A stretch of 11,150 bases of DNA from Pseudomonadota bacterium (GTDB taxonomy: Bacteria > Pseudomonadota > Alphaproteobacteria > Rhizobiales > Tepidamorphaceae), in NCBI GenBank assembly GCA_023435545.1, contig JAEYRQ010000154.1, positions 1 to 11,150 of the forward strand, read 5' to 3'. This document shows positions 2,871-11,150 of the stretch, in pieces (the first letter of the stretch is position 1; each line of letters opens with the position of its first letter). The notes beneath the pieces are model-generated. The model worked only from the letters and a program-made list of their open reading frames with translations, was not told the DNA's origin and made no database searches. The position numbers were made by a program, and so were the translations under genes.

Positions 2871-4964
2871 TCAGGCGGCCGCCTTGCGGTTGAGGATCAG
2901 CAGGGTGATGTCGTCGGATCGCTCCCCCCCGCTCTCGAAATACTGCACCGCCTCGACCACCGCCCGTGCCATGCCCTCAGGGCTGCGGCTAGCCGAATCC
3001 GCGAGGATCAACGCCAGCCGGTCCTCGCCGAACTGCTCGCCCCCCGGCGCGAACGCCTCGGTGACGCCGTCGGTGAACAGCACCAGCCTGTCCCCCGGCT
3101 CGAGGATGAGGCTGTGGGCGGTGAAGTCGAGATCCTCCATGACCGCCACCGCCATGTCGGTGGACGCTTCGAGCGCTCTGACCTCGCCCCGCGCCGAGAC
3201 GGTGAAGGGCGGGTTGTGGCCTGCGTTGACGTAGCGCAGCTCGCCGCTGTGCGGATCGAACACGCCAAAAAACAGTGTCACGAACATCATCTGGTCGTTG
3301 CCGGCACTGAGCAGCTCGTTGAGCTGACGGACGCAGACCGCCGGATCGGTCTCGAACAGCGCTATCGCCTTCAGCAATGTCCGGCAGATTGCCATAAAGA
3401 ACGCCGCCGGGACTCCCTTGCCCGAGACGTCGGCGATGACCACAGCAAAACGACCGTCGGTGCGGTCGAAGAAGTCGTAGAAGTCGCCGCCGACCTCGCG
3501 CGCCGATTCCATCGTCCCGAAGACCGAGAACTCCGGCCGGTCGGGGAAGTCCACCGGGATGACCGAGCGCTGCAGCTCCCGCGCGATCTGCAGCTCCTGC
3601 TGGAGGCTGGCAAGCTGGGTCTCCCGCACCAGCGCCTCCTGCAGGCGCGTGACGAGCTCGCTCAGCCGTCGGTGCTGCTCCACCACCCGCCCCGACATCT
3701 GCTGCAGCACGGCGGCGAGCGGTCCGAGCTGGTCGTCCTCCCGGATCAGGCGGCTCAGCGACTGCGAGCCGGGCGCCTCCTCGAGCGTCCCGGCGGTCGC
3801 GGCGACGATCCGGCGCAGGTCCGACAGCACCTCCTCGCGTGCACCCGCCTCCAGCGTGCCGGCCAGCGTCTCCATCTGCCGCCGCACGAACCGCTCTTGC
3901 CGGCGACGCTGCAACTCGCGCTGCCGCCGTGTGTCGTTGAAGGCGATCATGTCCCGGCGCAGGCCGCCGACGGCGTCGGCGATCTGGCCGATCTCGTCGT
4001 CGGACTCCTTGACAAGATCCGCCGACGTGTCGCCTCGCGACAGCGCCCCCAGCACTCCCACCGCCCGGTCGAGCGGGCGGAAGCTTGCCCGGAGGTAGAG
4101 GTAGAGGCCGACGAGCACCGCGAACAGCATCGCGATCGTTCCGGCGACCGTGAGCAGCGTCAGCCGCTCCACGGCGGCCAAGCTGGCGGTCGTGTCTCGC
4201 GCGGCCACCAGCAGGCCCGCAGACCCCGCAGCGATGTCCGCGAGCGGTACCGAGGTGATCGAATAGAGCCGCTCTTCGCGCTCGGCCTGGGTCACGGTGG
4301 CAATGCGCTGGGGCAAGGCGAGGCCGAAGCCGGGCCACAGATCGGATCTGGTTTCCTCGATCAGCCGCCCGCGGGTGTTGAGCATGAACGCATCGGCATC
4401 GAGAGCCGCAGCGAACCGCTCGAGCGCACCGTCGATCGGAGCGGCAAACGCCAGCACCAGGCCCCGCCCGCCAGAGGCCGACAACGGCTCGGCGACGACG
4501 ACGCGGAATCTGTCCGCCGAGACCTGGCGGATGCCGGCCGCTCCGGTCCCGTCGAGCACGGCCCGAATCGTCCCGAGATCGAGCAGGCGGAACGGCTCGG
4601 CAGCGACCGAAGAGGCGAAAAGGATGCGGCCATTACTGTCGAGGATCTGCATGTCGCTGAGGCCGGCGGCCGCGATCAGCCCGCGCGTCCAGCCGATCGC
4701 GGCGGCCCGGATCGTGCCGGGATCGCCTGACGCGAGCGCTTCCTGCAGCGCCGTGTCGGAGCCGATCTCGCTGGCCAGCCCCCGCATCGGTTCAGTGGCA
4801 CCGGCGACGATCTCCCGCCACAGCGCCTCGGTGCCGCTGATGGCGATCGCCGCATAGGGTTGTTCGGCCAGCCGCTCGCGCTGCAACCCGGCGAGCACCA
4901 GCCCGCCGAAGGTAACAAGGAAGGCGAGCGTGACGATGACGATGATCCGGGTGCGCAGCAGCAT
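2871..4964 (-). CDS. Membrane sensor protein phosphatase: dCache-like, HAMP, SpoIIE-type PP2C
   Basis: This 697-residue inner-membrane receptor has a serine/threonine phosphatase output. Order: TM helix 6-27; periplasmic sensor 28-265 with two PAS-like hairpins (DMQILDSNGRILFAS at 104-118, AFMLNTRGRL at 192-201), resembling a double Cache domain; TM helix 267-290; HAMP 291-345 (P297, D323-E324-I325-G326); charged linker and coiled coil to about 465; SpoIIE PP2C domain 470-693. Metal-binding motifs look intact: GGDFYD (D494, D497), ADVSGKG (D512), AGHNPP, FTDG (D632) and SDD (D684, D685). Relatives such as RsbU and SpoIIE dephosphorylate STAS anti-anti-sigma proteins; none is encoded in the window, so the target is unknown. 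It is the last gene of the minus arm, starting 9 bases after the 610-residue sensor-MFS gene, which strongly suggests shared transcription and a joint role. Its sensor lacks the GIPL-type motif of its neighbours. Confidence 0.92.
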   Translation of the reverse strand: MLLRTRIIVIVTLAFLVTFGGLVLAGLQRERLAEQPYAAIAISGTEALWREIVAGATEPMRGLASEIGSDTALQEALASGDPGTIRAAAIGWTRGLIAAAGLSDMQILDSNGRILFASSVAAEPFRLLDLGTIRAVLDGTGAAGIRQVSADRFRVVVAEPLSASGGRGLVLAFAAPIDGALERFAAALDADAFMLNTRGRLIEETRSDLWPGFGLALPQRIATVTQAEREERLYSITSVPLADIAAGSAGLLVAARDTTASLAAVERLTLLTVAGTIAMLFAVLVGLYLYLRASFRPLDRAVGVLGALSRGDTSADLVKESDDEIGQIADAVGGLRRDMIAFNDTRRQRELQRRRQERFVRRQMETLAGTLEAGAREEVLSDLRRIVAATAGTLEEAPGSQSLSRLIREDDQLGPLAAVLQQMSGRVVEQHRRLSELVTRLQEALVRETQLASLQQELQIARELQRSVIPVDFPDRPEFSVFGTMESAREVGGDFYDFFDRTDGRFAVVIADVSGKGVPAAFFMAICRTLLKAIALFETDPAVCVRQLNELLSAGNDQMMFVTLFFGVFDPHSGELRYVNAGHNPPFTVSARGEVRALEASTDMAVAVMEDLDFTAHSLILEPGDRLVLFTDGVTEAFAPGGEQFGEDRLALILADSASRSPEGMARAVVEAVQYFESGGERSDDITLLILNRKAAA

Positions 4965-4973
4965 GGTGACCGC

Positions 4974-6806
4974 TCAATCCGCCATGTTCGGATCGGACTG
5001 CCCCCGCGGCGCGGCAAGTGCTCCGACCAGCCCGAGGAGGACGACGCCGCCTGCGGCAACGGCATACTGGGGGAGCGCGAGGATGCTGGATGCCCCGACC
5101 GCCGCCGCCCCCGTGGCGATGCCGAGAGAGGCGGCGACCACGGCATCGCCCATCCGCGCACGGCGGGCGGACGCGAGCCCGCGCAGTCCTGCGCCCATCA
5201 ACAGCAGCCCGCCGGGGACCGCGGCCGAGTGCAGTCCCGGATTGGTGGCGATCGCCAGCCCAGCCGCGGTCAGCAGCGCGCCGGCGACGAGCGATCGCAA
5301 CGGCAGCAGCCAGGCCGCCATCCCGACGGTCGCGAACATCAGTGCGCCGGTGACGTAGTCGTCATAGCCGGGCCCCGCCGGAAGCTCGACCAGTAGCGTC
5401 CCCACGCTGACGCCGCCCGCGCAGATCGCTGCCGCCGACGCGAACCGCCGTCGCCGGGAGGTCTCGGGCAGCATTGTTGCTGCGCCGTCGCGCGCAACCG
5501 ACAACACCGCCGGCATCATGGCGAACAGAAGACATCCGGCGACGAGGAAGGTCATGCGCCGCCCGATCGCCTCGCCGAGCAGCCCGCCGACCATGGGTCC
5601 GGCGAGCAGGCCGGTGAACAGCACGATCCCGGCCGTGCCGGCGAAACGTCGCGCCCCGGCCGGCAGCAGCGCCGTAAGCGCGACGCCGAGGCCCGCGCCG
5701 GCCAATGCTCGCAATTCGAGGAATCCGATATAGTCGCGCGTCCAAGCCACCGCCGCCACGGCGACAGCCGACATCGCCAGCCCCCCCGCAGCCACCAGGC
5801 CGGGGGCGCCCGCCGCGACGAGGCGCGCCAGCAGGAAGCCGGCCGCCGCCGCCAATGCCACGGCCGCAATCGGCAGCACCGGCCACCACGCCTCGGAGAC
5901 ATGCGTCCAGTCGCGATCGATGGCAAAATTGGCGACGAAGGGCGCCGAGATCGCGTAGATCCCGACCACGACGACCGCGATCCACGCACCAGCCTCGGAT
6001 CGACGCGCCTCGGACGGACCCGCCACGGGCTGGTTGACGGCCATCACGGCTGAAACGGGCTCGACGATCGGCTGGACGCGGCGCGACAGCGAGCCGTCGA
6101 AATCGATCGCCTTGACCGTGGCGACAGCGTCCTCGAGCGTATGCGCCGACCGCATCAGGCCGGCGATGCAGGTATCGTAGGCACGGAACGCGGTCGCCAC
6201 GGCACCGCGCCCCTTTCCCGGCGGCAACAGCTCGTAGCGCCCCTCGATCGCGGCACGCATGCGATCGTCGAGGCGCCGGCGCCCGGCCGCGACATGGTGG
6301 GTGAGGTACAGGTGGGCCACGACACCGCCGATCAACCCGGCAAGGATGGACACGCAGGCCAGCGCCAGCCGTAGCCGGTCTATCGCCTGCCCGACCAGCG
6401 GAGGCGCGATCGCCAGCACCAGCGTCGCCGCCTCGGCACCGTCGAGCAGGACGGGGAAGGCGACGCCCTCGACGGCCGGCGCCGTCTCGACGACCACCTG
6501 GCCGTCGGTACCGCGCAGCGCCAGCGCCTTGACGATGGGCGAGCCGGCCACGATCGTTTGGAAGTAGCGGTCCACCGCATACAAGCGGTCGAGGGGGATG
6601 CCGTAGCCCAGCGCCCGACCGATCTCGTCTGCGACCGCGCGACCCACTGTCTCGGCCGAGGCTTCCGTCGCCTCCTCGAGGATCGGCAGGCTTTGCTGTG
6701 AGGCGGCCCGCAACAGGCCGGCCGCACCGGCTCCGACGGCCAGCGCGATGACGACGCCGACAAGCCCGGCAAGCAGCACGTCGCGAGTACGACTAGGCCG
6801 CCGCAT
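4974..6806 (-). CDS. Sensor domain fused to a degenerate MFS-like membrane domain
   Basis: The 610-residue protein starts with TM helix 9-33, followed by a periplasmic module (34-143) containing GIPL at 69-72, P90 and D101-G102. TM helix 146-168 and a weak HAMP-like cytoplasmic linker (169-265) follow. Residues 273-597 hold about twelve hydrophobic segments that align with the MFS part of the 662-residue protein. Shared parts are the loop GPMVGGLLGEAIGRRMTFLVAG (403-424, split: GPMVGGLL, then RRMTFLVAG) and the segment around 357-383. The MFS hallmark motif A between helices 2 and 3 is missing: the aligned stretch (about 325-337) is hydrophobic and lacks the arginine cluster. The EE and R of the paralogue's first MFS helix are replaced by Y284, A285 and A288. 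I infer a transporter-like sensor that may no longer transport, comparable in principle to UhpC. The gene overlaps the upstream sensor gene by 14 bases; GAGGA lies 5 bases before its ATG. Confidence 0.8.
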   Translation of the reverse strand: MRRPSRTRDVLLAGLVGVVIALAVGAGAAGLLRAASQQSLPILEEATEASAETVGRAVADEIGRALGYGIPLDRLYAVDRYFQTIVAGSPIVKALALRGTDGQVVVETAPAVEGVAFPVLLDGAEAATLVLAIAPPLVGQAIDRLRLALACVSILAGLIGGVVAHLYLTHHVAAGRRRLDDRMRAAIEGRYELLPPGKGRGAVATAFRAYDTCIAGLMRSAHTLEDAVATVKAIDFDGSLSRRVQPIVEPVSAVMAVNQPVAGPSEARRSEAGAWIAVVVVGIYAISAPFVANFAIDRDWTHVSEAWWPVLPIAAVALAAAAGFLLARLVAAGAPGLVAAGGLAMSAVAVAAVAWTRDYIGFLELRALAGAGLGVALTALLPAGARRFAGTAGIVLFTGLLAGPMVGGLLGEAIGRRMTFLVAGCLLFAMMPAVLSVARDGAATMLPETSRRRRFASAAAICAGGVSVGTLLVELPAGPGYDDYVTGALMFATVGMAAWLLPLRSLVAGALLTAAGLAIATNPGLHSAAVPGGLLLMGAGLRGLASARRARMGDAVVAASLGIATGAAAVGASSILALPQYAVAAGGVVLLGLVGALAAPRGQSDPNMAD

Positions 6807-7578
6807 CGCGTTCCTCGTCCTCGTCGATGCGCCGCACCGCCGCAGCCGCCGCCTCGACGCGGGCCGTCATCCGTTCGATCGAGGCTCGCATCGCGACCGC
6901 CGTCGCCACGAGGTCGTCCCCGTGCACCGTCGCAGTCTCGGGCGGCCGATCTGCACCCAGCACCTCCGCCGCCCGCGCGAGATCGCGTCCGCCCGCCCGC
7001 AGGACGAGCGCCGCCACGATGGCGACCAGGCCGAAGCCGCCGATCGCGATCGCTGCCAGCCACGGCAGCAGCGTTTCCGCCACCGTGTCGGCGTGCGCTT
7101 CGCGCGCCGTTCCCGACAGCGTGATCGCGATCTCGCCGGCCGTTTCGCCGAAGTCGTTGCGGACGGATTCGCCCACGACGATGGCGCCGAACTCCTCGAG
7201 CCGCCATCTGTCGTCGGGCGCGCGGCGGCGGATCGCCTCCTGCCAGGCCTGGGTGATGGGCTCGCCGACACTCCCACGGTCGGTGTTGAAGACGGATATC
7301 CCCGCCGTGTTGAAGATCTCGATCGCCAGGATGTCGGGACTGCCCGCCCGCTCGCGCTCGATCAGGTCCTGCGCAACCCGGATCTCCGGCAGCGCAAGTC
7401 CGAGGCTGATGCTCGTCTCGACCGCGTCACGCAGCTGGGTCAGCACGAAATCGGTGTTCGATTCGGCGGCGCGCAGGCGCAACCGGTCGAGCGTCGCGAA
7501 CACCAGCACGGCTGCCAGCACCAGCCCTGCGACCGCCAGCATCGCAAGCAGGAAGACAGTACGCGCTCTCGGTGACAT
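6793..7578 (-). CDS. Membrane sensor with HAMP-like tail and no output domain
   Basis: This 261-residue protein has TM helix 7-29, a periplasmic module (30-168), TM helix 172-193 and a cytoplasmic HAMP-like, alanine-rich helical segment (195-250), then an acidic end. No kinase, phosphatase, cyclase or chemotaxis domain follows. The sensor has the pattern shared by four proteins of this locus: G60, P81 and G93 at exactly conserved spacing, plus N141-D-F-G144, which it shares only with the 212-residue protein. I infer a partner subunit for the sensor-MFS protein encoded directly downstream, with which the gene overlaps by 14 bases. The start at 7578 was chosen because a short basic N-terminus then leads straight into the TM helix and a candidate promoter lies 38-66 bases upstream. 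An in-frame ATG at 7605 (nine more residues) is possible; extension towards 7791 would cross the divergent gene start and is unlikely. Confidence 0.75.
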   Translation of the reverse strand: MSPRARTVFLLAMLAVAGLVLAAVLVFATLDRLRLRAAESNTDFVLTQLRDAVETSISLGLALPEIRVAQDLIERERAGSPDILAIEIFNTAGISVFNTDRGSVGEPITQAWQEAIRRRAPDDRWRLEEFGAIVVGESVRNDFGETAGEIAITLSGTAREAHADTVAETLLPWLAAIAIGGFGLVAIVAALVLRAGGRDLARAAEVLGADRPPETATVHGDDLVATAVAMRASIERMTARVEAAAAAVRRIDEDEERDAAA

Positions 7579-7615
7579 GTCCCTGGATTCGGCCCCGCAT
7601 CCCATCGGCGCGACG

Positions 7616-7644
7616 ACCCTAGCCGAGCGGCCCTGCCCTGTCAC
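7616..7644 (-). promoter_or_regulatory. Candidate promoter of the minus arm
   Basis: On the minus strand GTGACA (7644-7639; five of six matches to TTGACA) and TAGGGT (7621-7616; three of six to TATAAT) are separated by 17 bases. The inferred transcription start is near 7608, about 30 bases before the ATG at 7578. The -10 match is weak. Confidence 0.25.
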
Positions 7645-7679
7645 TTCGCACGGCCATACCCGCCGAATCCGAACAACAT

Positions 7680-7711
7680 TTAACATTCGATCAGGTGCAG
7701 TACGTGATAAT
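7680..7711 (+). promoter_or_regulatory. Candidate promoter of the plus arm in an AT-rich island
   Basis: GATAAT at 7706-7711 matches five of six bases of the -10 consensus, and TTAACA at 7680-7685 matches five of six of the -35, but the 20-base spacer is longer than the usual 16-18. A heptad repeat (AACATT at 7675-7680 and 7682-7687) sits over the -35 and could be an activator or repressor half-site pair. This is the only AT-rich patch in the divergent gap. The ATG at 7748 is about 30 bases beyond the inferred start of transcription. Confidence 0.3.
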
Positions 7712-7747
7712 GGAGATGGGATTCTCGGGCCGCTGGGACGGATTCGC

Positions 7748-8386
7748 ATGCTCAGGCTTGCGCTGAGGACATTGCCGCTCTTCGCGGTCATCGTCGGGTT
7801 CGCGATGGCCCTCGGCGCCTACATGAACTACAGCGGAGTGCGTGGCGCGTATCTGGACCTGATCCGCGACCGCATGCAGATGGTCGCCACCGACGTCGGC
7901 ACCGTGATCGAATCCGCGGTCTCGGTCGGCATCCCGCCGTCCGAGCAGGTCACGCTTCCAACGCTTCTCGCCCGTCAGGCCGAAGCCGATCCCATCATCC
8001 GGGCGATTCATGTCGTCGCTCCCGACGGGCAGCTGCTGTTCACGAGCGAGCCGGATGCTGGTGCGCCGCAGGCCGGCGATGCAGGCGAGGTGCTGACGAT
8101 CGAGCGGCCCGCGCTGAACGATTTCGGCGTCGAGGTCGCCCGCCTCGTCATTCTCTACGACCGTTCCGCATTGGACGCGCGCATCGAGGGCTTCGGCAGA
8201 GCCATCCTGGCCGATGCCCTTCCTGCGGGGCTGATCGCCGTCTTCGCCGGCAGCCTCGCGGCCTTTCTGGTGCTGACGCGGCTGCATCGCCGGGCCTCCC
8301 GCGTCGCAGTCGACAGAGACGATGCAATCGCGGCGGCTCGCCGGGAAATCGACGGGCCCGCGAGCCAGCCGGGAGCCGCGACGTGA
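7748..8386 (+). CDS. Membrane sensor without output domain, first gene of plus arm
   Basis: This 212-residue protein consists of TM helix about 8-26, a periplasmic module (27-154), TM helix 157-178 and a 34-residue basic cytoplasmic tail, too short for a HAMP or any catalytic domain. The sensor carries GIPP at 61-64, P82 and D93-G94 at the same spacing as the three related proteins, and N124-D-F-G127 in common with the 261-residue protein of the opposite arm. That places it as the plus-arm counterpart of that protein. The start at 7748 follows GGGACGGA (7735-7742); no ATG or GTG start lies in frame in the divergent gap. The stop overlaps the GTG start of the next gene (GTGA, 8383-8386), which implies translational coupling. 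I infer it works as an accessory sensor or subunit with the 662-residue protein; its ligand is unknown. Confidence 0.75.
   Translation: MLRLALRTLPLFAVIVGFAMALGAYMNYSGVRGAYLDLIRDRMQMVATDVGTVIESAVSVGIPPSEQVTLPTLLARQAEADPIIRAIHVVAPDGQLLFTSEPDAGAPQAGDAGEVLTIERPALNDFGVEVARLVILYDRSALDARIEGFGRAILADALPAGLIAVFAGSLAAFLVLTRLHRRASRVAVDRDDAIAAARREIDGPASQPGAAT
8371..8375 (+). promoter_or_regulatory. Shine-Dalgarno supporting a GTG start
   Basis: GGGAG lies 7 bases before the GTG at 8383, inside the end of the preceding gene. It supports GTG as the real start of the 662-residue protein and the 4-base overlap. Confidence 0.55.
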
Positions 8387-10371
8387 ACCGGATCCAGATC
8401 CGGCTGTCGGTCGCGCTCGTCGCCGTCCTGCTGGCGGCGCTGGCCTTTCTCAGCCTGCGCACCGCGGAGCGTGCGGAGACGCTGCTACTGCCCGAGGTCG
8501 GCGCAAAGGCCGAGACGGTGGCGCGCTCAGTGGCCGGCCTCGTCACCCGGGCCGACGATGTCGGCATCCCGCTCGACCGGCTGGTCGGGCTCGACACCTA
8601 TCTGCAGCGCCTGATCGACGGCAATCCGGACCTCGCCTTCATCGGTCTTCTCGACGCGGACGGCCGCGTCCGCTACTGGGCCGGGACGGAATCCTCAGCG
8701 CCGGGCGCGCGCGTCCCGCTCGACATCGCTGGTAGCGCCGATGGGCTCACGCTCGCCGTGGACCTCGACCCGGAGTTCGCCCGCAGCGTCGTCTACAAGC
8801 TGTGGATCGATCTCGCCATCGTTATGGTCGTCACGGCTCTCGTCGCGCTGGAACTCGTCTACATCAGCTTCGGCGTCGGCCTATACGGCGCCATCGAAGG
8901 CGTCGAGCAGCGGCTGCAGGCGATCCAGCGCGGCGACCTCCGGCGGCACGAGCCGGTGGCGGGCGGCAGCAACTTCGGCGACATCGCGGCGCGTCTCGAC
9001 CAGCGCCTGACGGGGGTCGCCGAGCGCCTGCGGGCGATGACAGATGCCGCGAAGGCCGCCGGCGACTCGGCGCGCCTAGCCGTGCTGGAGGCCCTGCGGG
9101 CGAAATACCGGCTCGGCGAAGTGTTCGGCGATGCGCCGGTTTCCGTGATCGCGATCCGGGCACCGCTGTTCGTCTTCATGTTCGCCGAGGAACTGACGCG
9201 GCCGTTCCTGCCCATATTCATCCAGCGCCTCGCCTCGCCGATCCCCGGCCTGTCGCCGGCGCTGGTGATCAGCCTGCCGATGGTGGTTTTCCTGGCGATC
9301 GTCGCACTCGCTCAGCCGGTGCTCGGCACGGTGACCGAGCGGGCTGGGCGCCGCCGCTCGCTGATGCTGGGCGCGGCGCTCGGCGCTGCCGGCTATGTTG
9401 CCACCGCCTACGCCTTTGACCTACTCGGGCTGACGCTTGCCCGCGCGGTCACTGCCGTCGGCTTCGCGCTCGTCTTCGTCGCCGCTCAGGGCTTCGTCAT
9501 CGATGCGACCAGCGGCAGGCAGCGTGCCCGCGGCATGGCGGTGTTCATCGGCGCGATTCTCGTGGCGGGGCTCTGCGGTCCGCCCATCGGCGGCATCCTC
9601 GCCGACCGGCTGGGCATGCAGGTCGCCTTCCTCGTCGCCGGGGCGCTCGCCGCAGCCAGCCTCGGCCTTGCCGCAATGGCGCTGCCGCGGACTCCGCGAG
9701 GGGCGGACGCGGTGCCGTCGATCCGCTGGCGCGACTTCACCGCGACGCTCTCGTCGCCTCGGCTCGCCGCGCTGCTGTTCCTCTGCGCACTGCCGGCCAA
9801 GGTGGTTCTGGTGGCATTCTGCTTCTTCCTGACGCCGCTGCAGATGGAAGCGCTGGGCCAGGACCAGGCGGCGACCGGGCGGATGCTGATGATCTATCCG
9901 CTGGCGATGGTGCTGCTGGTGCCAGCCTTCGCCTCGCTCGCCGACCGCGCCGACCGCCAGGTGATGCTGGTCGCCGGCGGCGGCCTGATCGCCGGACTCG
10001 GTGGCTATGCCGTCCTCATTGACCCGACGAGCCTTTATGCGCTCGGCGCCATGCTGCTGCTGCTCGGGCTGGGGCAGGCGATGAGCATCGCCTCACAGTC
10101 GGCCCTGGTCGGGACCCTCGGCCGGCAGCTCTCCCCGGCGGTCCCCGAGAGCTCGCTCTATGGTATCTTCCGACTGGTCGAACGCACCGGCAGTGCGATC
10201 GGGCCGGTCGTCGCCGGGGCCTTGCTCGGTCTCTACGGCTTCACGACGGCGACTGCGCTGATCGGCACCTGCGTCGCCATCGGCGCGCTGCTGTTCGCGC
10301 TCGCCTCGGCCATCGGCCGCAGGACCGGGGACAGACCTGCGGGCCCGATGATCGAAGGGAGGACGGCATGA
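8383..10371 (+). CDS. Sensor-HAMP-MFS fusion transporter
   Basis: The 662-residue protein has TM helix 7-26, a periplasmic sensor (27-138) with GIPL at 61-64, P82 and D93-G94, TM helix 141-162, a cytoplasmic HAMP-like segment (163-215) with a helical linker to about 250, and a full MFS domain (about 252-645) with roughly twelve helices. MFS motif A is recognisable between helices 2 and 3 (G315, E319-R320, R323-R325), with a related ADR (520-522) at the matching place in the second half. GPPIGGILADRLG (399-411) is the usual loop before helix 6. Helix 1 carries E269, E270 and R273, unusual charges in a membrane segment that may form a proton or substrate site. MFS proteins normally lack sensor and HAMP parts, so transport gated by a periplasmic signal, or a transport-sensing receptor, is inferred. 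It overlaps the genes on both sides by 4 bases. Substrate unknown. Confidence 0.88.
   Translation: MNRIQIRLSVALVAVLLAALAFLSLRTAERAETLLLPEVGAKAETVARSVAGLVTRADDVGIPLDRLVGLDTYLQRLIDGNPDLAFIGLLDADGRVRYWAGTESSAPGARVPLDIAGSADGLTLAVDLDPEFARSVVYKLWIDLAIVMVVTALVALELVYISFGVGLYGAIEGVEQRLQAIQRGDLRRHEPVAGGSNFGDIAARLDQRLTGVAERLRAMTDAAKAAGDSARLAVLEALRAKYRLGEVFGDAPVSVIAIRAPLFVFMFAEELTRPFLPIFIQRLASPIPGLSPALVISLPMVVFLAIVALAQPVLGTVTERAGRRRSLMLGAALGAAGYVATAYAFDLLGLTLARAVTAVGFALVFVAAQGFVIDATSGRQRARGMAVFIGAILVAGLCGPPIGGILADRLGMQVAFLVAGALAAASLGLAAMALPRTPRGADAVPSIRWRDFTATLSSPRLAALLFLCALPAKVVLVAFCFFLTPLQMEALGQDQAATGRMLMIYPLAMVLLVPAFASLADRADRQVMLVAGGGLIAGLGGYAVLIDPTSLYALGAMLLLLGLGQAMSIASQSALVGTLGRQLSPAVPESSLYGIFRLVERTGSAIGPVVAGALLGLYGFTTATALIGTCVAIGALLFALASAIGRRTGDRPAGPMIEGRTA
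10356..10363 (+). promoter_or_regulatory. Strong Shine-Dalgarno for the substrate-binding protein
   Basis: AGGGAGGA ends 4 bases before the ATG at 10368 and lies within the 3' end of the preceding gene. It is the best Shine-Dalgarno in the window, fitting high synthesis of a periplasmic binding protein from a downstream cistron. Confidence 0.6.
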
Positions 10372-11150
10372 AGCGCAGGGAATTCCTGATCCTGTCGCTC
10401 GCGGGCGCGGCGCTCGTCACGGCGCCGGCGGTTGCGCAGTCCGAACCCTACCGCATCTACCGTGTCACCTTCCGGGGCCGCACCGCGGTGGAGGAGGGCT
10501 TTGACGACTACCTTGCGGCCAATGGCGTGCCGGTCGAGATCATCGAGCGCGACATCGGCCGCGACACCTCGAAGCTGCCGGGCCTGGTGGAGGAGATCCG
10601 CCAACTGAAGCCGGACCTCGTCTACACATGGGGAACGCCGGCGACGCTCGGCATTGCCGGCCGCCACGATGCCGCCGACACCTCCGCCCATATCACCGAT
10701 ATTCCCGTGGTGTTCGCGCTCGTCTCGGCGCCGGTCCAATCGGGGTTGGTTCCGGATCTCGAGGCGACCGGCCGGAACGTCACCGGCGCCGTCCACGTCG
10801 TTCCGACCGAGACCCAGCTGCGGGCCATGGCCTCGTACCGGCCCTTCCGCAGGCTCGGCGTCCTCTACAATCCGACCGAGCAGAACTCGGTGTCGATCGT
10901 CAAGGAGCTGGAGGAGCTTCGCGGCCATCTCGGTTTCGAGCTGGTGACGCGGGAGTTCCGCCTCGGTCCCGACGGCAAGCCGGTCGCAGACGGCATCGAG
11001 GATCTGATCGCCGAGATCAAGGCCGACGGTGCGGAATGGCTCTACCTCTTGCCCGACACGTTCCTTGGAACCGTCTATGACCGGGTGGTCCCGGCGGCGC
11101 TGAACGAGAAGCTGCCGACCTTTGGTGCCGCCGAGCTCGCGGTGCGCGAG
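10368..11150 (+). CDS. Tat-exported ABC-type substrate-binding protein (ABC_sub_bind type), partial at 3' end
   Basis: The frame is open from the ATG at 10368 to the window end (261 codons, no stop), so the C-terminus is missing. The N-terminus KRREFL followed by a hydrophobic stretch and AVAQ (about 21-24) is a twin-arginine-like signal, so the protein is likely exported folded to the periplasm. The mature part looks like the ABC_sub_bind family (PF04392, TrpX-like): an opening strand, then LPGLVEEIRQLKPDLVYTWG (about 70-89) with the typical statement of a periplasmic-binding fold, IPVVFALVSAP (about 112-122) followed by a GLV turn, a TGxxxxVP segment, the LGVLYNP strand near 163-169, and a later WLYLLPD strand. 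Family members feed ABC importers; permease and ATPase genes may lie just to the right. It overlaps the sensor-MFS stop by 4 bases (ATGA), so it may instead present ligand to the sensor proteins. The family assignment rests on pattern recognition only. Confidence 0.85.
   Translation, partial: MKRREFLILSLAGAALVTAPAVAQSEPYRIYRVTFRGRTAVEEGFDDYLAANGVPVEIIERDIGRDTSKLPGLVEEIRQLKPDLVYTWGTPATLGIAGRHDAADTSAHITDIPVVFALVSAPVQSGLVPDLEATGRNVTGAVHVVPTETQLRAMASYRPFRRLGVLYNPTEQNSVSIVKELEELRGHLGFELVTREFRLGPDGKPVADGIEDLIAEIKADGAEWLYLLPDTFLGTVYDRVVPAALNEKLPTFGAAELAVRE

What the first reader, a model, noticed from the sequence alone, without database searches (positions are those of the whole stretch)
2871..11150. 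Mirror-image divergent sensor/MFS locus with phosphatase and binding protein ends
Seen: two divergent operons each start with a two-TM sensor lacking output, continue with a sensor fused to an MFS-type domain, and end with a different effector (SpoIIE phosphatase on one side, periplasmic binding protein on the other). Gene overlaps make each arm one unit. Known: transporter-like sensors exist (UhpC of the MFS; CbrA, a transporter-histidine kinase fusion), but I know of no described system with this six-part layout. Inferred: solute sensing in the periplasm is relayed through transporter-like domains to a phosphatase controlling a partner-switch.
Basis: partly seen in the sequence, partly recalled or inferred. 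Interest (0 to 1): 0.78.

Follow-up and report, generated by a model that had tools for sequence, protein, structure and literature searches.

The report
Transporter-like receptor locus feeding a phosphatase
A conserved cluster of bacterial genes appears to sense a small molecule outside the cell with a binding protein and transporter-shaped receptors, and to pass the signal inside through a protein phosphatase; its parts are known, but this combination seems undescribed.

Summary
Two divergent arms share a 169-bp gap. Each has a two-TM Cache-like sensor, a sensor fused to an MFS domain, and an effector (SpoIIE left, ABC_sub_bind right). The fusions are homologous (hhalign 99.8%, E 2e-30); the left one, without Pfam match, models as an MFS fold. 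Of 62 mapped sensor-MFS loci, 22 show the complete divergent layout, so both refutation tests failed. The window cuts the locus short: in those 22, GNAT follows in 22, alanine racemase is present in 13, STAS in 18, RsbW-type ATPase in 18, class III cyclase in 10, fused to the ATPase in 6. The window's nearest database relatives probably carry that fusion on the same contigs. The right MFS domain is strongly constrained, the left is not. Best reading: a ligand receptor driving a PP2C/STAS/kinase partner switch, with a cyclase as output in one branch. Elsewhere the module sits beside other amine-modifying enzymes or among type VI secretion genes. Function is inferred; nothing was tested at the bench.

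The parts
2871..4964 (-). SpoIIE/PP2C phosphatase: N-terminal membrane sensor region, HAMP, SpoIIE domain; effector of the left arm
   Evidence: Pfam SpoIIE E 1.9e-55, residues 503-693; HAMP 2.6e-05. Kin in the PDB: PP2C domains of response regulators, Rv1364c and SpoIIE. The N-terminus of the syntenic relative L047 matches dCache_3.
4974..6806 (-). mFus: Cache-like sensor + linker with IDFDGSL motif + weakly constrained 12-helix MFS domain
   Evidence: No Pfam hit; homologous to pFus; AF2 pLDDT 81, pTM 0.72, 12 long C-terminal helices; Foldseek to VAChT, VMAT and MdfA, best E 4.2e-06, TM-score by target 0.40-0.67 in the 50 listed rows.
6793..7578 (-). mSens: two-TM Cache-like sensor without output domain (start read from sequence)
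   Evidence: ORF, start read; aligned with 31 other sensors.
7579..7747 (.). Divergent intergenic region, presumed to hold both promoters
   Evidence: Gene limits. A sigma-70 consensus scan found none, which says little for this group. The 22 divergent loci keep a gap (median 175.5 bp, range 77-663, by my gene calls).
7748..8386 (+). pSens: two-TM Cache-like sensor without output domain
   Evidence: AF2 pLDDT 90; Foldseek top rows are WalK, KinD, DctB and CitA extracytoplasmic sensors, but only one row (a WalK-YycH model) reaches E <= 0.001.
8383..10371 (+). pFus: Cache-like sensor fused to a constrained MFS domain
   Evidence: MFS_1 E 5.6e-33; 75 of 390 MFS-domain positions invariant over 23 sequences.
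10368..11150 (+). ABC_sub_bind periplasmic binding protein, cut by the contig end; twin-arginine-like signal sequence
   Evidence: PF04392 E 1.5e-16. PDB kin of the L001 orthologue: 3lkv, 6hni, 3lft.

Best explanation
The locus is a ligand receptor that controls a PP2C partner switch. A periplasmic ABC_sub_bind protein catches a small ligand, probably amino-acid-like, and docks on a membrane complex made of a two-TM Cache sensor and a Cache-MFS protein (right arm). The right-arm MFS domain still binds or moves the ligand. A diverged copy of the same pair (left arm), whose MFS domain has become a pseudo-transporter, couples the complex to the membrane SpoIIE phosphatase. The phosphatase dephosphorylates a STAS protein encoded just beyond the window, which then switches partners with an RsbW-type kinase; in the window's branch that kinase is fused or adjacent to a class III nucleotide cyclase, the likely output. 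Shown: gene content, homology, conserved layout, linkage of the switch genes in relatives, unequal constraint on the two MFS domains. Inferred: complex formation, signal direction, ligand, and that the cyclase is what is controlled.
For: Conserved unit: 22 of 62 mapped loci have all six genes in the divergent layout; two more have the same layout with the SpoIIE protein replaced by a dCache-HAMP-class III cyclase (L047, L048), and three have both arms on one strand (L011, L052, L053). Of the 62, 58 have a Cache sensor immediately upstream of the sensor-MFS gene on the same strand and 57 an ABC_sub_bind gene within -2 to +4 genes; of the five without, three are contig-cut and two (L056, L057) have it three genes upstream. 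STAS in 18, HATPase in 18, cyclase in 10 of the 22; cyclase and HATPase fused in 6 of the 22 and in L003; 40 of the 120 listed database hits to the fusion carry both PF13581 and PF00211. Twenty contig lengths are shared between the sensor-MFS hits (55 distinct lengths) and the first cyclase hits (63 distinct lengths), among them those of the window's closest relatives, 9886 and 12055 bases. Fusions tie neighbours together: two sensor parts plus MFS in one chain of 795-855 aa (L062, L063, L066, L067, L159, L160; second sensor read from sequence, weak profile match); sensor joined to SpoIIE (L056, L057). Constraint: pFus MFS 75 of 390 positions invariant with 18 conserved charged residues, mFus MFS 5 of 336 with 5. 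In the tree all 17 left-arm copies form one group (100/99), and within the window's own group the resolved branching of left- and right-arm proteins agrees.
Against: The STAS, kinase and cyclase genes are not in the window; their presence in its own genome rests on relatives. STAS is missing in 4 of 22 loci, a HATPase gene call in 4, the cyclase in 12. Many loci have the receptor module with no SpoIIE in the stretch mapped, so it does not always feed a phosphatase (L051, L055, L059, L061, L135-L137, L146, L147, L154, L155, L157-L161). Genome-level co-occurrence of the cyclase with the fusion looks good at first (4 of 8 strong cyclase genomes, p 0.0003; 5 of 23 in all, p 0.004) but is modest once the query genomes are removed (2 of 6, p 0.025; 3 of 21, p 0.059). 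The cyclase lacks the usual substrate-specifying residues, so its product, or activity, is uncertain. No expression, binding or interaction data exist.
Confidence: 0.6

Rival explanations
1. A regulated uptake or efflux system: the binding protein delivers a substrate to the MFS protein, which transports it; GNAT and racemase metabolise it; the phosphatase arm only tunes transport or expression.
For: The right-arm MFS domain keeps strong constraint and conserved charged residues. One PDB relative of the binding protein is named an extracellular solute-binding protein of a transport system (6hni). GNAT stays with the module even where no SpoIIE was mapped (L135-L137, L146, L154, L155, L161).
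Against: Both arms carry Cache-like sensor domains that a plain transporter does not need. The left copy keeps the MFS fold with little constraint. No ABC permease or ATPase was found among the nine window proteins. The SpoIIE/STAS/HATPase set is linked in most six-part loci.
Confidence: 0.2
2. The switch controls an alternative sigma factor, as in the classical Rsb systems, and the cyclase is only a neighbour.
For: STAS and HATPase_c_2 partners are of the anti-sigma type; 12 of 22 six-part loci have no cyclase within the stretch examined.
Against: No sigma factor among ten genes flanking the switch, one per locus in ten loci; two of the ten had no Pfam match. Kinase and cyclase are fused in many proteins. 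An alphaproteobacterial partner switch, RbaV/W/Y, also had no sigma factor that its authors could find (PMC3999984 abstract).
Confidence: 0.12
3. The two arms are independent systems that merely share a promoter region: a binding-protein/MFS module and a phosphatase module.
For: Single-arm loci exist (L045, L049, L054, L132), and the arms lie on opposite strands in most six-part genomes.
Against: The arms stay together even when all genes lie on one strand (L011, L052, L053). The two fusions show the same resolved branching in the window's group. In single-arm loci the phosphatase sits with the binding-protein arm (L012-L014, L045, L046, L049, L054, L132).
Confidence: 0.08

Closest known systems
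SiaABCD of Pseudomonas aeruginosa (abstracts of PMC7647112 and PMC8457831)
   Same: A PP2C-type phosphatase and a kinase set the phosphorylation of a partner protein, and that partner activates a nucleotide cyclase; a section heading of PMC7647112 says the partner resembles anti-sigma factor antagonists.
   Different: SiaD is a diguanylate cyclase; here it is a class III cyclase, in some loci fused to the kinase. No binding protein or MFS-type receptor is mentioned in those abstracts.
RbaV/RbaW/RbaY of Rhodobacter capsulatus (PMC3999984 abstract)
   Same: Alphaproteobacterial RsbV/RsbW/RsbY-like partner switch for which no sigma factor was found.
   Different: The abstract reports neither sensor-MFS proteins nor a binding protein nor a cyclase.
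CbrA (SLC5 transporter domain fused to a histidine kinase; passages of PMC8871633) and Ks-Amt5 (ammonium transporter domain fused to a histidine kinase; abstract and headings of PMC5764959)
   Same: A transporter domain recruited as a sensory module; Ks-Amt5 binds but does not translocate (a section heading of that paper).
   Different: Other transporter folds, with the kinase in the same chain. Here the fold is MFS, the output is a separate PP2C phosphatase, and a periplasmic binding protein is added.
LuxP-LuxQ type signalling (recalled; one LuxP-LuxQ structure appears at rank 38, E 0.15)
   Same: Periplasmic binding protein plus membrane sensor with an extracytoplasmic Cache/PAS-like domain.
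   Different: LuxQ is a histidine kinase (recalled); no kinase domain was found in the receptor proteins here.

Membership tests
SpoIIE/STAS/HATPase partner switch | PP2C phosphatase of the SpoIIE family with its metal-binding motifs | tested here: met
   Window SpoIIE domain, Pfam E 1.9e-55; GGDFYD, ADVSGKG and SDDIT stretches read in the sequence (meaning of the motifs recalled).
SpoIIE/STAS/HATPase partner switch | STAS antagonist and RsbW-type kinase encoded with it | tested here: met
   In relatives only: STAS 18 of 22, HATPase 18 of 22, Pfam on examples. The window ends before that region.
SpoIIE/STAS/HATPase partner switch | Phosphorylation of STAS by the kinase and reversal by the phosphatase | not testable with these tools
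   Needs biochemistry.
Classical Rsb sigma-factor switch | Cognate sigma factor | tested here: inconclusive
   None among ten flanking genes, one per locus in ten loci, two of them without any Pfam match; the rest of the genomes was not searched.
SiaABCD | Diguanylate cyclase (GGDEF) target | tested here: inconclusive
   A class III cyclase is linked instead; none of the flanking genes scanned matched GGDEF, but genomes were not searched for one.
MFS transporter superfamily | MFS fold | tested here: met
   pFus MFS_1 E 5.6e-33; mFus by structure comparison of a model.
MFS transporter superfamily | Conserved intramembrane functional residues | tested here: inconclusive
   Over 22 loci plus the window: 18 conserved charged positions in the pFus MFS domain against 5 in mFus; whether they lie in the membrane core was not modelled for pFus.
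MFS transporter superfamily | Transport activity | not testable with these tools
   Needs uptake assays.
Transporter-histidine kinase fusions (CbrA type) | Histidine kinase domain in the receptor | tested here: not met
   No HisKA or HATPase match in the sensor, sensor-MFS or SpoIIE proteins of the window at E <= 1.
ABC uptake transporter | Cognate permease and ATPase genes | tested here: inconclusive
   None among the nine window proteins (one sub-threshold permease match in mSens, E 0.11). The genes beyond the window's right end and the neighbours in other loci were not scanned for them.

The most novel reading that the evidence does not exclude
A self-contained small-molecule signalling system. 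Different versions of the receptor module carry different amine- or amino-acid-modifying enzymes beside it: GNAT acyltransferase, alanine racemase, formyltransferase, D-Ala-D-Ala-ligase-like or other ATP-grasp ligase, glutamate-cysteine-ligase-like enzyme, ketopantoate hydroxymethyltransferase. These enzymes would make, or tailor, the very ligand that the binding protein and MFS receptor detect, so that each version speaks its own chemical dialect. The output is interchangeable: phosphatase plus partner switch plus cyclase, a direct membrane cyclase, or a type VI secretion cluster. (Some loci show no such enzyme beside the module, for example L059, L061, L133, L147 and L157-L160, which speaks against a general rule.)
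Probability: 0.2. Interest if true: 0.9.

Novelty: new variant of a known kind. Interest (0 to 1): 0.7.

Why it matters
What the membrane phosphatases of partner switches sense is, as far as I recall, mostly unknown. Here the sensor side is written out gene by gene, in cultivable species such as Chelatococcus asaccharovorans DSM 6462 (L004), so ligand, receptor, phosphatase, kinase and output can be tested one deletion at a time. It would add MFS-type receptors working through a phosphatase to the known transporter-kinase fusions, and it gives a paired natural experiment: one constrained and one relaxed copy of the same MFS receptor in a single locus. The link to cyclases in one branch and to type VI secretion genes in another would make the receptor a portable input unit.

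Tried and rejected
Genome of the window: not held, so neighbours beyond the window come from relatives. Viral contigs: no relative of pFus. Idea that the four-gene Thalassospira operon is the ancestor of the six-part locus: dropped, because in the tree the left-arm copies form a group of their own beside all right-arm copies; the tree is unrooted, several left-arm branches are long, the tool warns that the join of the L052 and L053 left-arm copies may be false, and the make-up of 15 rows departs from the model, so the order of events is open. Idea that VgpA/VgpB (remembered as type VI gatekeepers) are relatives: the listing shows they belong to type III secretion; rejected. Sigma-70 promoter scan of the divergent gap: nothing, uninformative. 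Cyclase/fusion co-occurrence as strong proof: reduced after removing query genomes. Literature: ten searches listed no paper that describes this gene set; I saw listings, four abstracts with section headings and passages of one paper; only open-licence PMC papers are held, so this is not proof of absence.

Rows left out and weak points: the alignment used 20 of 35 hits and that 22 of 28; one search used 12 sequences (the window and 11 of the 14 loci) and 8; the tree used 55 chosen rows, the six dual-sensor proteins cut to their last 640 residues and L014 with a short gene call. Searches used a pSens without its first 27 residues and an mSens with the longer ORF start. One search compared contig lengths of P0002-P0063 (without the window's own P0036) with those of P0064-P0127 only; P0128 onward was not compared. 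Gene calls come from a simple codon-usage caller of mine, so start sites and split genes are approximate; neighbour labels come from my own profiles except where a Pfam call is cited. The 62 loci were all found through pFus and some are close relatives, so the counts are not independent events. only wrote a helper file.
Full report
OBSERVATION. The window is probably a whole contig (the longest contig listed for its own protein P0001 has 11,150 bases); no genome is held for it. ORFs and Pfam give two divergent arms. Left: SpoIIE 2871-4964, sensor-MFS 'mFus' 4974-6806, sensor 'mSens' 6793-7578. Right: sensor 'pSens' 7748-8386, sensor-MFS 'pFus' 8383-10371, ABC_sub_bind 10368-11150, cut by the contig end. 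Overlaps of 14, 4 and 4 bp and a 9-bp gap support one transcript per arm. The genes left of it (unknown protein 176-700, dehydroquinase 740-1255, sodium:sulfate-symporter-type protein 1371-2849) lie outside both arms; nothing like them was labelled in the 14 loci.

ARE THE HALVES REALLY MIRROR IMAGES? Yes in origin. pFus and mFus match at 28% identity over the sensor (E 2e-12), and profile against profile with probability 99.84% (E 2.2e-30) over 380 columns from the sensor into the first half of the MFS domain. mFus has no Pfam match, but its model (pLDDT 81, pTM 0.72, 22 aligned sequences) ends in 12 long helices and its best PDB matches are MFS transporters such as VAChT, VMAT and MdfA (best E 4.2e-06; TM-score by target 0.59 for the top row and 0.67 for the highest listed; rmsd mostly 5-7 A). 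pSens is modelled as a Cache/PAS-like extracytoplasmic sensor (pLDDT 90; WalK, KinD, DctB and CitA among the rows; best E 2.4e-05, only one row at E <= 0.001). Both kinds of stand-alone sensor align in a set of 32, although the window's two hardly match pairwise (E 0.04). Pfam does not recognise the sensor parts of the sensor and sensor-MFS proteins.

CONSERVATION. A scan of the species-genome collection with the pFus alignment returned 14 loci out of 59 candidate stretches. Searches of whole genomes gave 29 of 385 in the class of Jiella pelagia (L007, G007) at E <= 1e-40, 20 of them at E <= 1e-100; 26 of 397 in its order at E <= 1e-60; 9 of 398 in its phylum; and 5 of 369 in the class of G1052, which I take to be Gammaproteobacteria, though the tool names no group. 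In the gene maps, 22 of 62 loci show all six genes in the divergent layout (L001, L002, L004-L009, L118-L131). Two more (L047, L048) have the same layout with the SpoIIE protein replaced by a dCache-HAMP-class III cyclase (Pfam on L047; L048 by similarity). Three (L011, L052, L053) have both arms on one strand, and L162 has a comparable set on one strand. L003 and L010 are contig-cut but consistent. Of the 62 loci (profile score 250 or more), a Cache sensor lies immediately upstream on the same strand in 58 and an ABC_sub_bind gene within -2 to +4 genes in 57; of the five without, three are contig-cut and L056 and L057 have it three genes upstream. All loci were found through pFus and some are near relatives, so these are not 62 independent events.

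THE UNIT IS LARGER THAN THE WINDOW. In the 22 loci a GNAT gene follows ABC_sub_bind in 22; alanine racemase is present in 13; STAS in 18; HATPase in 18 (L007's is split, and missed by the gene caller); class III cyclase in 10, fused to the HATPase in 6 of the 22 and also in L003. Pfam confirms these families on examples, and the racemase aligns with solved alanine racemases through the lysine and tyrosine stretches (roles recalled). Of the 120 database hits listed for the kinase-cyclase fusion (224 found), 40 carry both domains. Twenty contig lengths are shared between the sensor-MFS hits and the first 63 cyclase hits with distinct lengths. They include 9886 (pFus 88% identical to the window's over the 250 residues searched, and a fusion) and 12055 (mFus 73% identical, and a fusion), so the window's nearest relatives probably encode the fused kinase-cyclase near the receptor. 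Equal length suggests, and does not prove, the same contig. None of ten flanking genes scanned, one per locus, is a sigma factor; eight had other Pfam matches and two had none. Across the 385-genome sample, 4 of 8 genomes with a strong cyclase match also have the fusion (p 0.0003), but only 2 of 6 after removing the query genomes (p 0.025); with all cyclase matches 5 of 23 (p 0.004) and 3 of 21 (p 0.059).

THE TWO MFS DOMAINS ARE NOT EQUAL. Over the same 22 loci, mean pairwise identity is 60% for ABC_sub_bind, 48% SpoIIE, 47% pFus, 39% GNAT, 38% pSens, 34% mSens and 30% mFus. With the window included, 75 of 390 MFS-domain positions of pFus are invariant and 18 charged or His positions are conserved in 90% or more, against 5 of 336 and 5 in mFus. 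In L056 and L057 the left arm has lost the MFS domain: a Cache-like sensor is joined to the membrane SpoIIE protein (971 aa; partly my reading of the sequence printed). So the right-arm MFS is under selection as a binding or transport domain, while the left one looks like a pseudo-transporter kept for coupling (inference). A 55-row tree puts all 17 left-arm copies on one side of a branch (100/99) and shows the same resolved branching of left and right copies inside the window's group; several left-arm branches are long and the tool warns of one possibly false join, so deeper order is uncertain.

FUSIONS. Relatives of 795-855 aa carry two sensor parts and the MFS domain in one chain (L062, L063, L066, L067, L159, L160; MFS_1 confirmed in L062 and L063; the first sensor read from the sequences for L062 and L063 and from a weak sensor-profile match in L159 and L160; L066 and L067 by length and similarity), which argues that the separate pSens and pFus work together.

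OTHER OUTPUTS AND ENZYMES. Single-arm loci place SpoIIE with the ABC_sub_bind arm (L012-L014, L045, L046, L049, L054, L132-L134). Many loci have no SpoIIE in the stretch mapped (L051, L055, L059, L061, L135-L137, L146, L147, L154, L155, L157-L161). Pfam identifies different enzymes beside other versions: ketopantoate hydroxymethyltransferase (L045), ATP-grasp (L047), D-Ala-D-Ala-ligase-like (L056, L063, L066), GCS2 (L062), formyltransferase (L054), with similar genes in L049, L048, L154 and L155, L057, L067 and L132 by my profiles. Most of these chemistries act on amines or amino acids; that common denominator is my inference, and L059, L061, L133, L147 and L157-L160 show no such enzyme beside the module. 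In L157 and L159, and by visibly similar neighbours in L158 and L160, the module lies among type VI secretion genes (ImpA_N, Hcp and sheath in L157; ClpB/ClpV-type ATPase and VasE in L159; Pfam); L155 (Azospirillum sp. B510) has ImpA_N and Hcp genes 3.5-5 kb upstream. L168 has two VgrG-like neighbours by eye; L161, L169 and L171 show no such genes in what I could read, and L170 is too short.

MECHANISM. As stated under best explanation. The order ligand, binding protein, right arm, left arm, SpoIIE, STAS, kinase, cyclase is inferred from co-conservation and fusions; only gene content, homology, linkage and constraint are shown. An amino-acid-like ligand is a guess from the enzymes and from what I recall of ABC_sub_bind proteins. 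The cyclase keeps the two metal aspartates (alignment; roles recalled), but the positions that select ATP or GTP (recalled) mostly carry N and M in the alignments, so its product is open.

KNOWN SYSTEMS. It works like SiaABCD, a partner switch whose output is a nucleotide cyclase (abstracts), but with a class III cyclase and a different receptor. It resembles CbrA and Ks-Amt5 in recruiting a transporter domain as sensor but has no histidine kinase. The alphaproteobacterial RbaVWY switch likewise had no sigma factor that its authors could find (abstract). Ten literature searches listed no description of this gene set.

VERDICT. A real, conserved, apparently undescribed receptor locus, best filed as a new variant of the PP2C partner switch. 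Interest 0.7; the self-made-signal reading (probability 0.2) would raise it to 0.9.

Noticed in passing
L157:7805-19731, L159:4301-13981, L155:3803-12945: The receptor module lies within or near type VI secretion genes (ImpA_N, Hcp and sheath in L157; ClpB/ClpV-type ATPase and VasE in L159; ImpA_N and Hcp in L155).
   Followed up: partly
L012:2954-6766, L013:583-17619: In Thalassospira the four-gene version lies beside flagellar/type III-type export genes (Bac_export_1 in L012; the rest read from sequence); a patatin-like gene lies beyond it in L013 (by eye).
   Followed up: no
window 4974-6806 (residues 233-240): mFus carries a motif AIDFDGSL between sensor and MFS domain, each position at least 90% conserved in 22 sequences; over the 23 sequences only its first D stays invariant. 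A candidate contact for the phosphatase.
   Followed up: no
L001:15242-16951 and alignment A4: The class III cyclase has unusual residues at the nucleotide-selecting positions, and an N-terminal region of about 200 aa without a Pfam match.
   Followed up: partly
L047:3257-5440, L048:14979-17162: SpoIIE replaced by a class III cyclase behind the same type of sensor and HAMP at the same place (Pfam on L047).
   Followed up: partly
L154:9069-14949: Azospirillum brasilense Sp7 carries sensor, sensor-MFS, ABC_sub_bind, GNAT and ATP-grasp genes on a 1.75-Mb replicon, a convenient laboratory strain for the input module.
   Followed up: partly
window 10368-10460: The binding protein starts with a twin-arginine-like signal (KRREFL); a strict RRx[FL] pattern occurs in 25 of 59 gene calls, so Tat export is possible.
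   Followed up: partly
L007:13792-15710: Alanine racemase and HATPase genes of Jiella pelagia appear split into two frames; decay or sequence error, not examined.
   Followed up: no
L133:11770-13923: A 718-aa protein without Pfam match lies between ABC_sub_bind and SpoIIE in a single-arm locus.
   Followed up: no
L159:7080-7769 and L059:7386-8366: A second, different binding-protein gene lies next to ABC_sub_bind: SBP_bac_3 in L159, and one that looks like a TRAP-type solute receptor in L059 (by eye).
   Followed up: no
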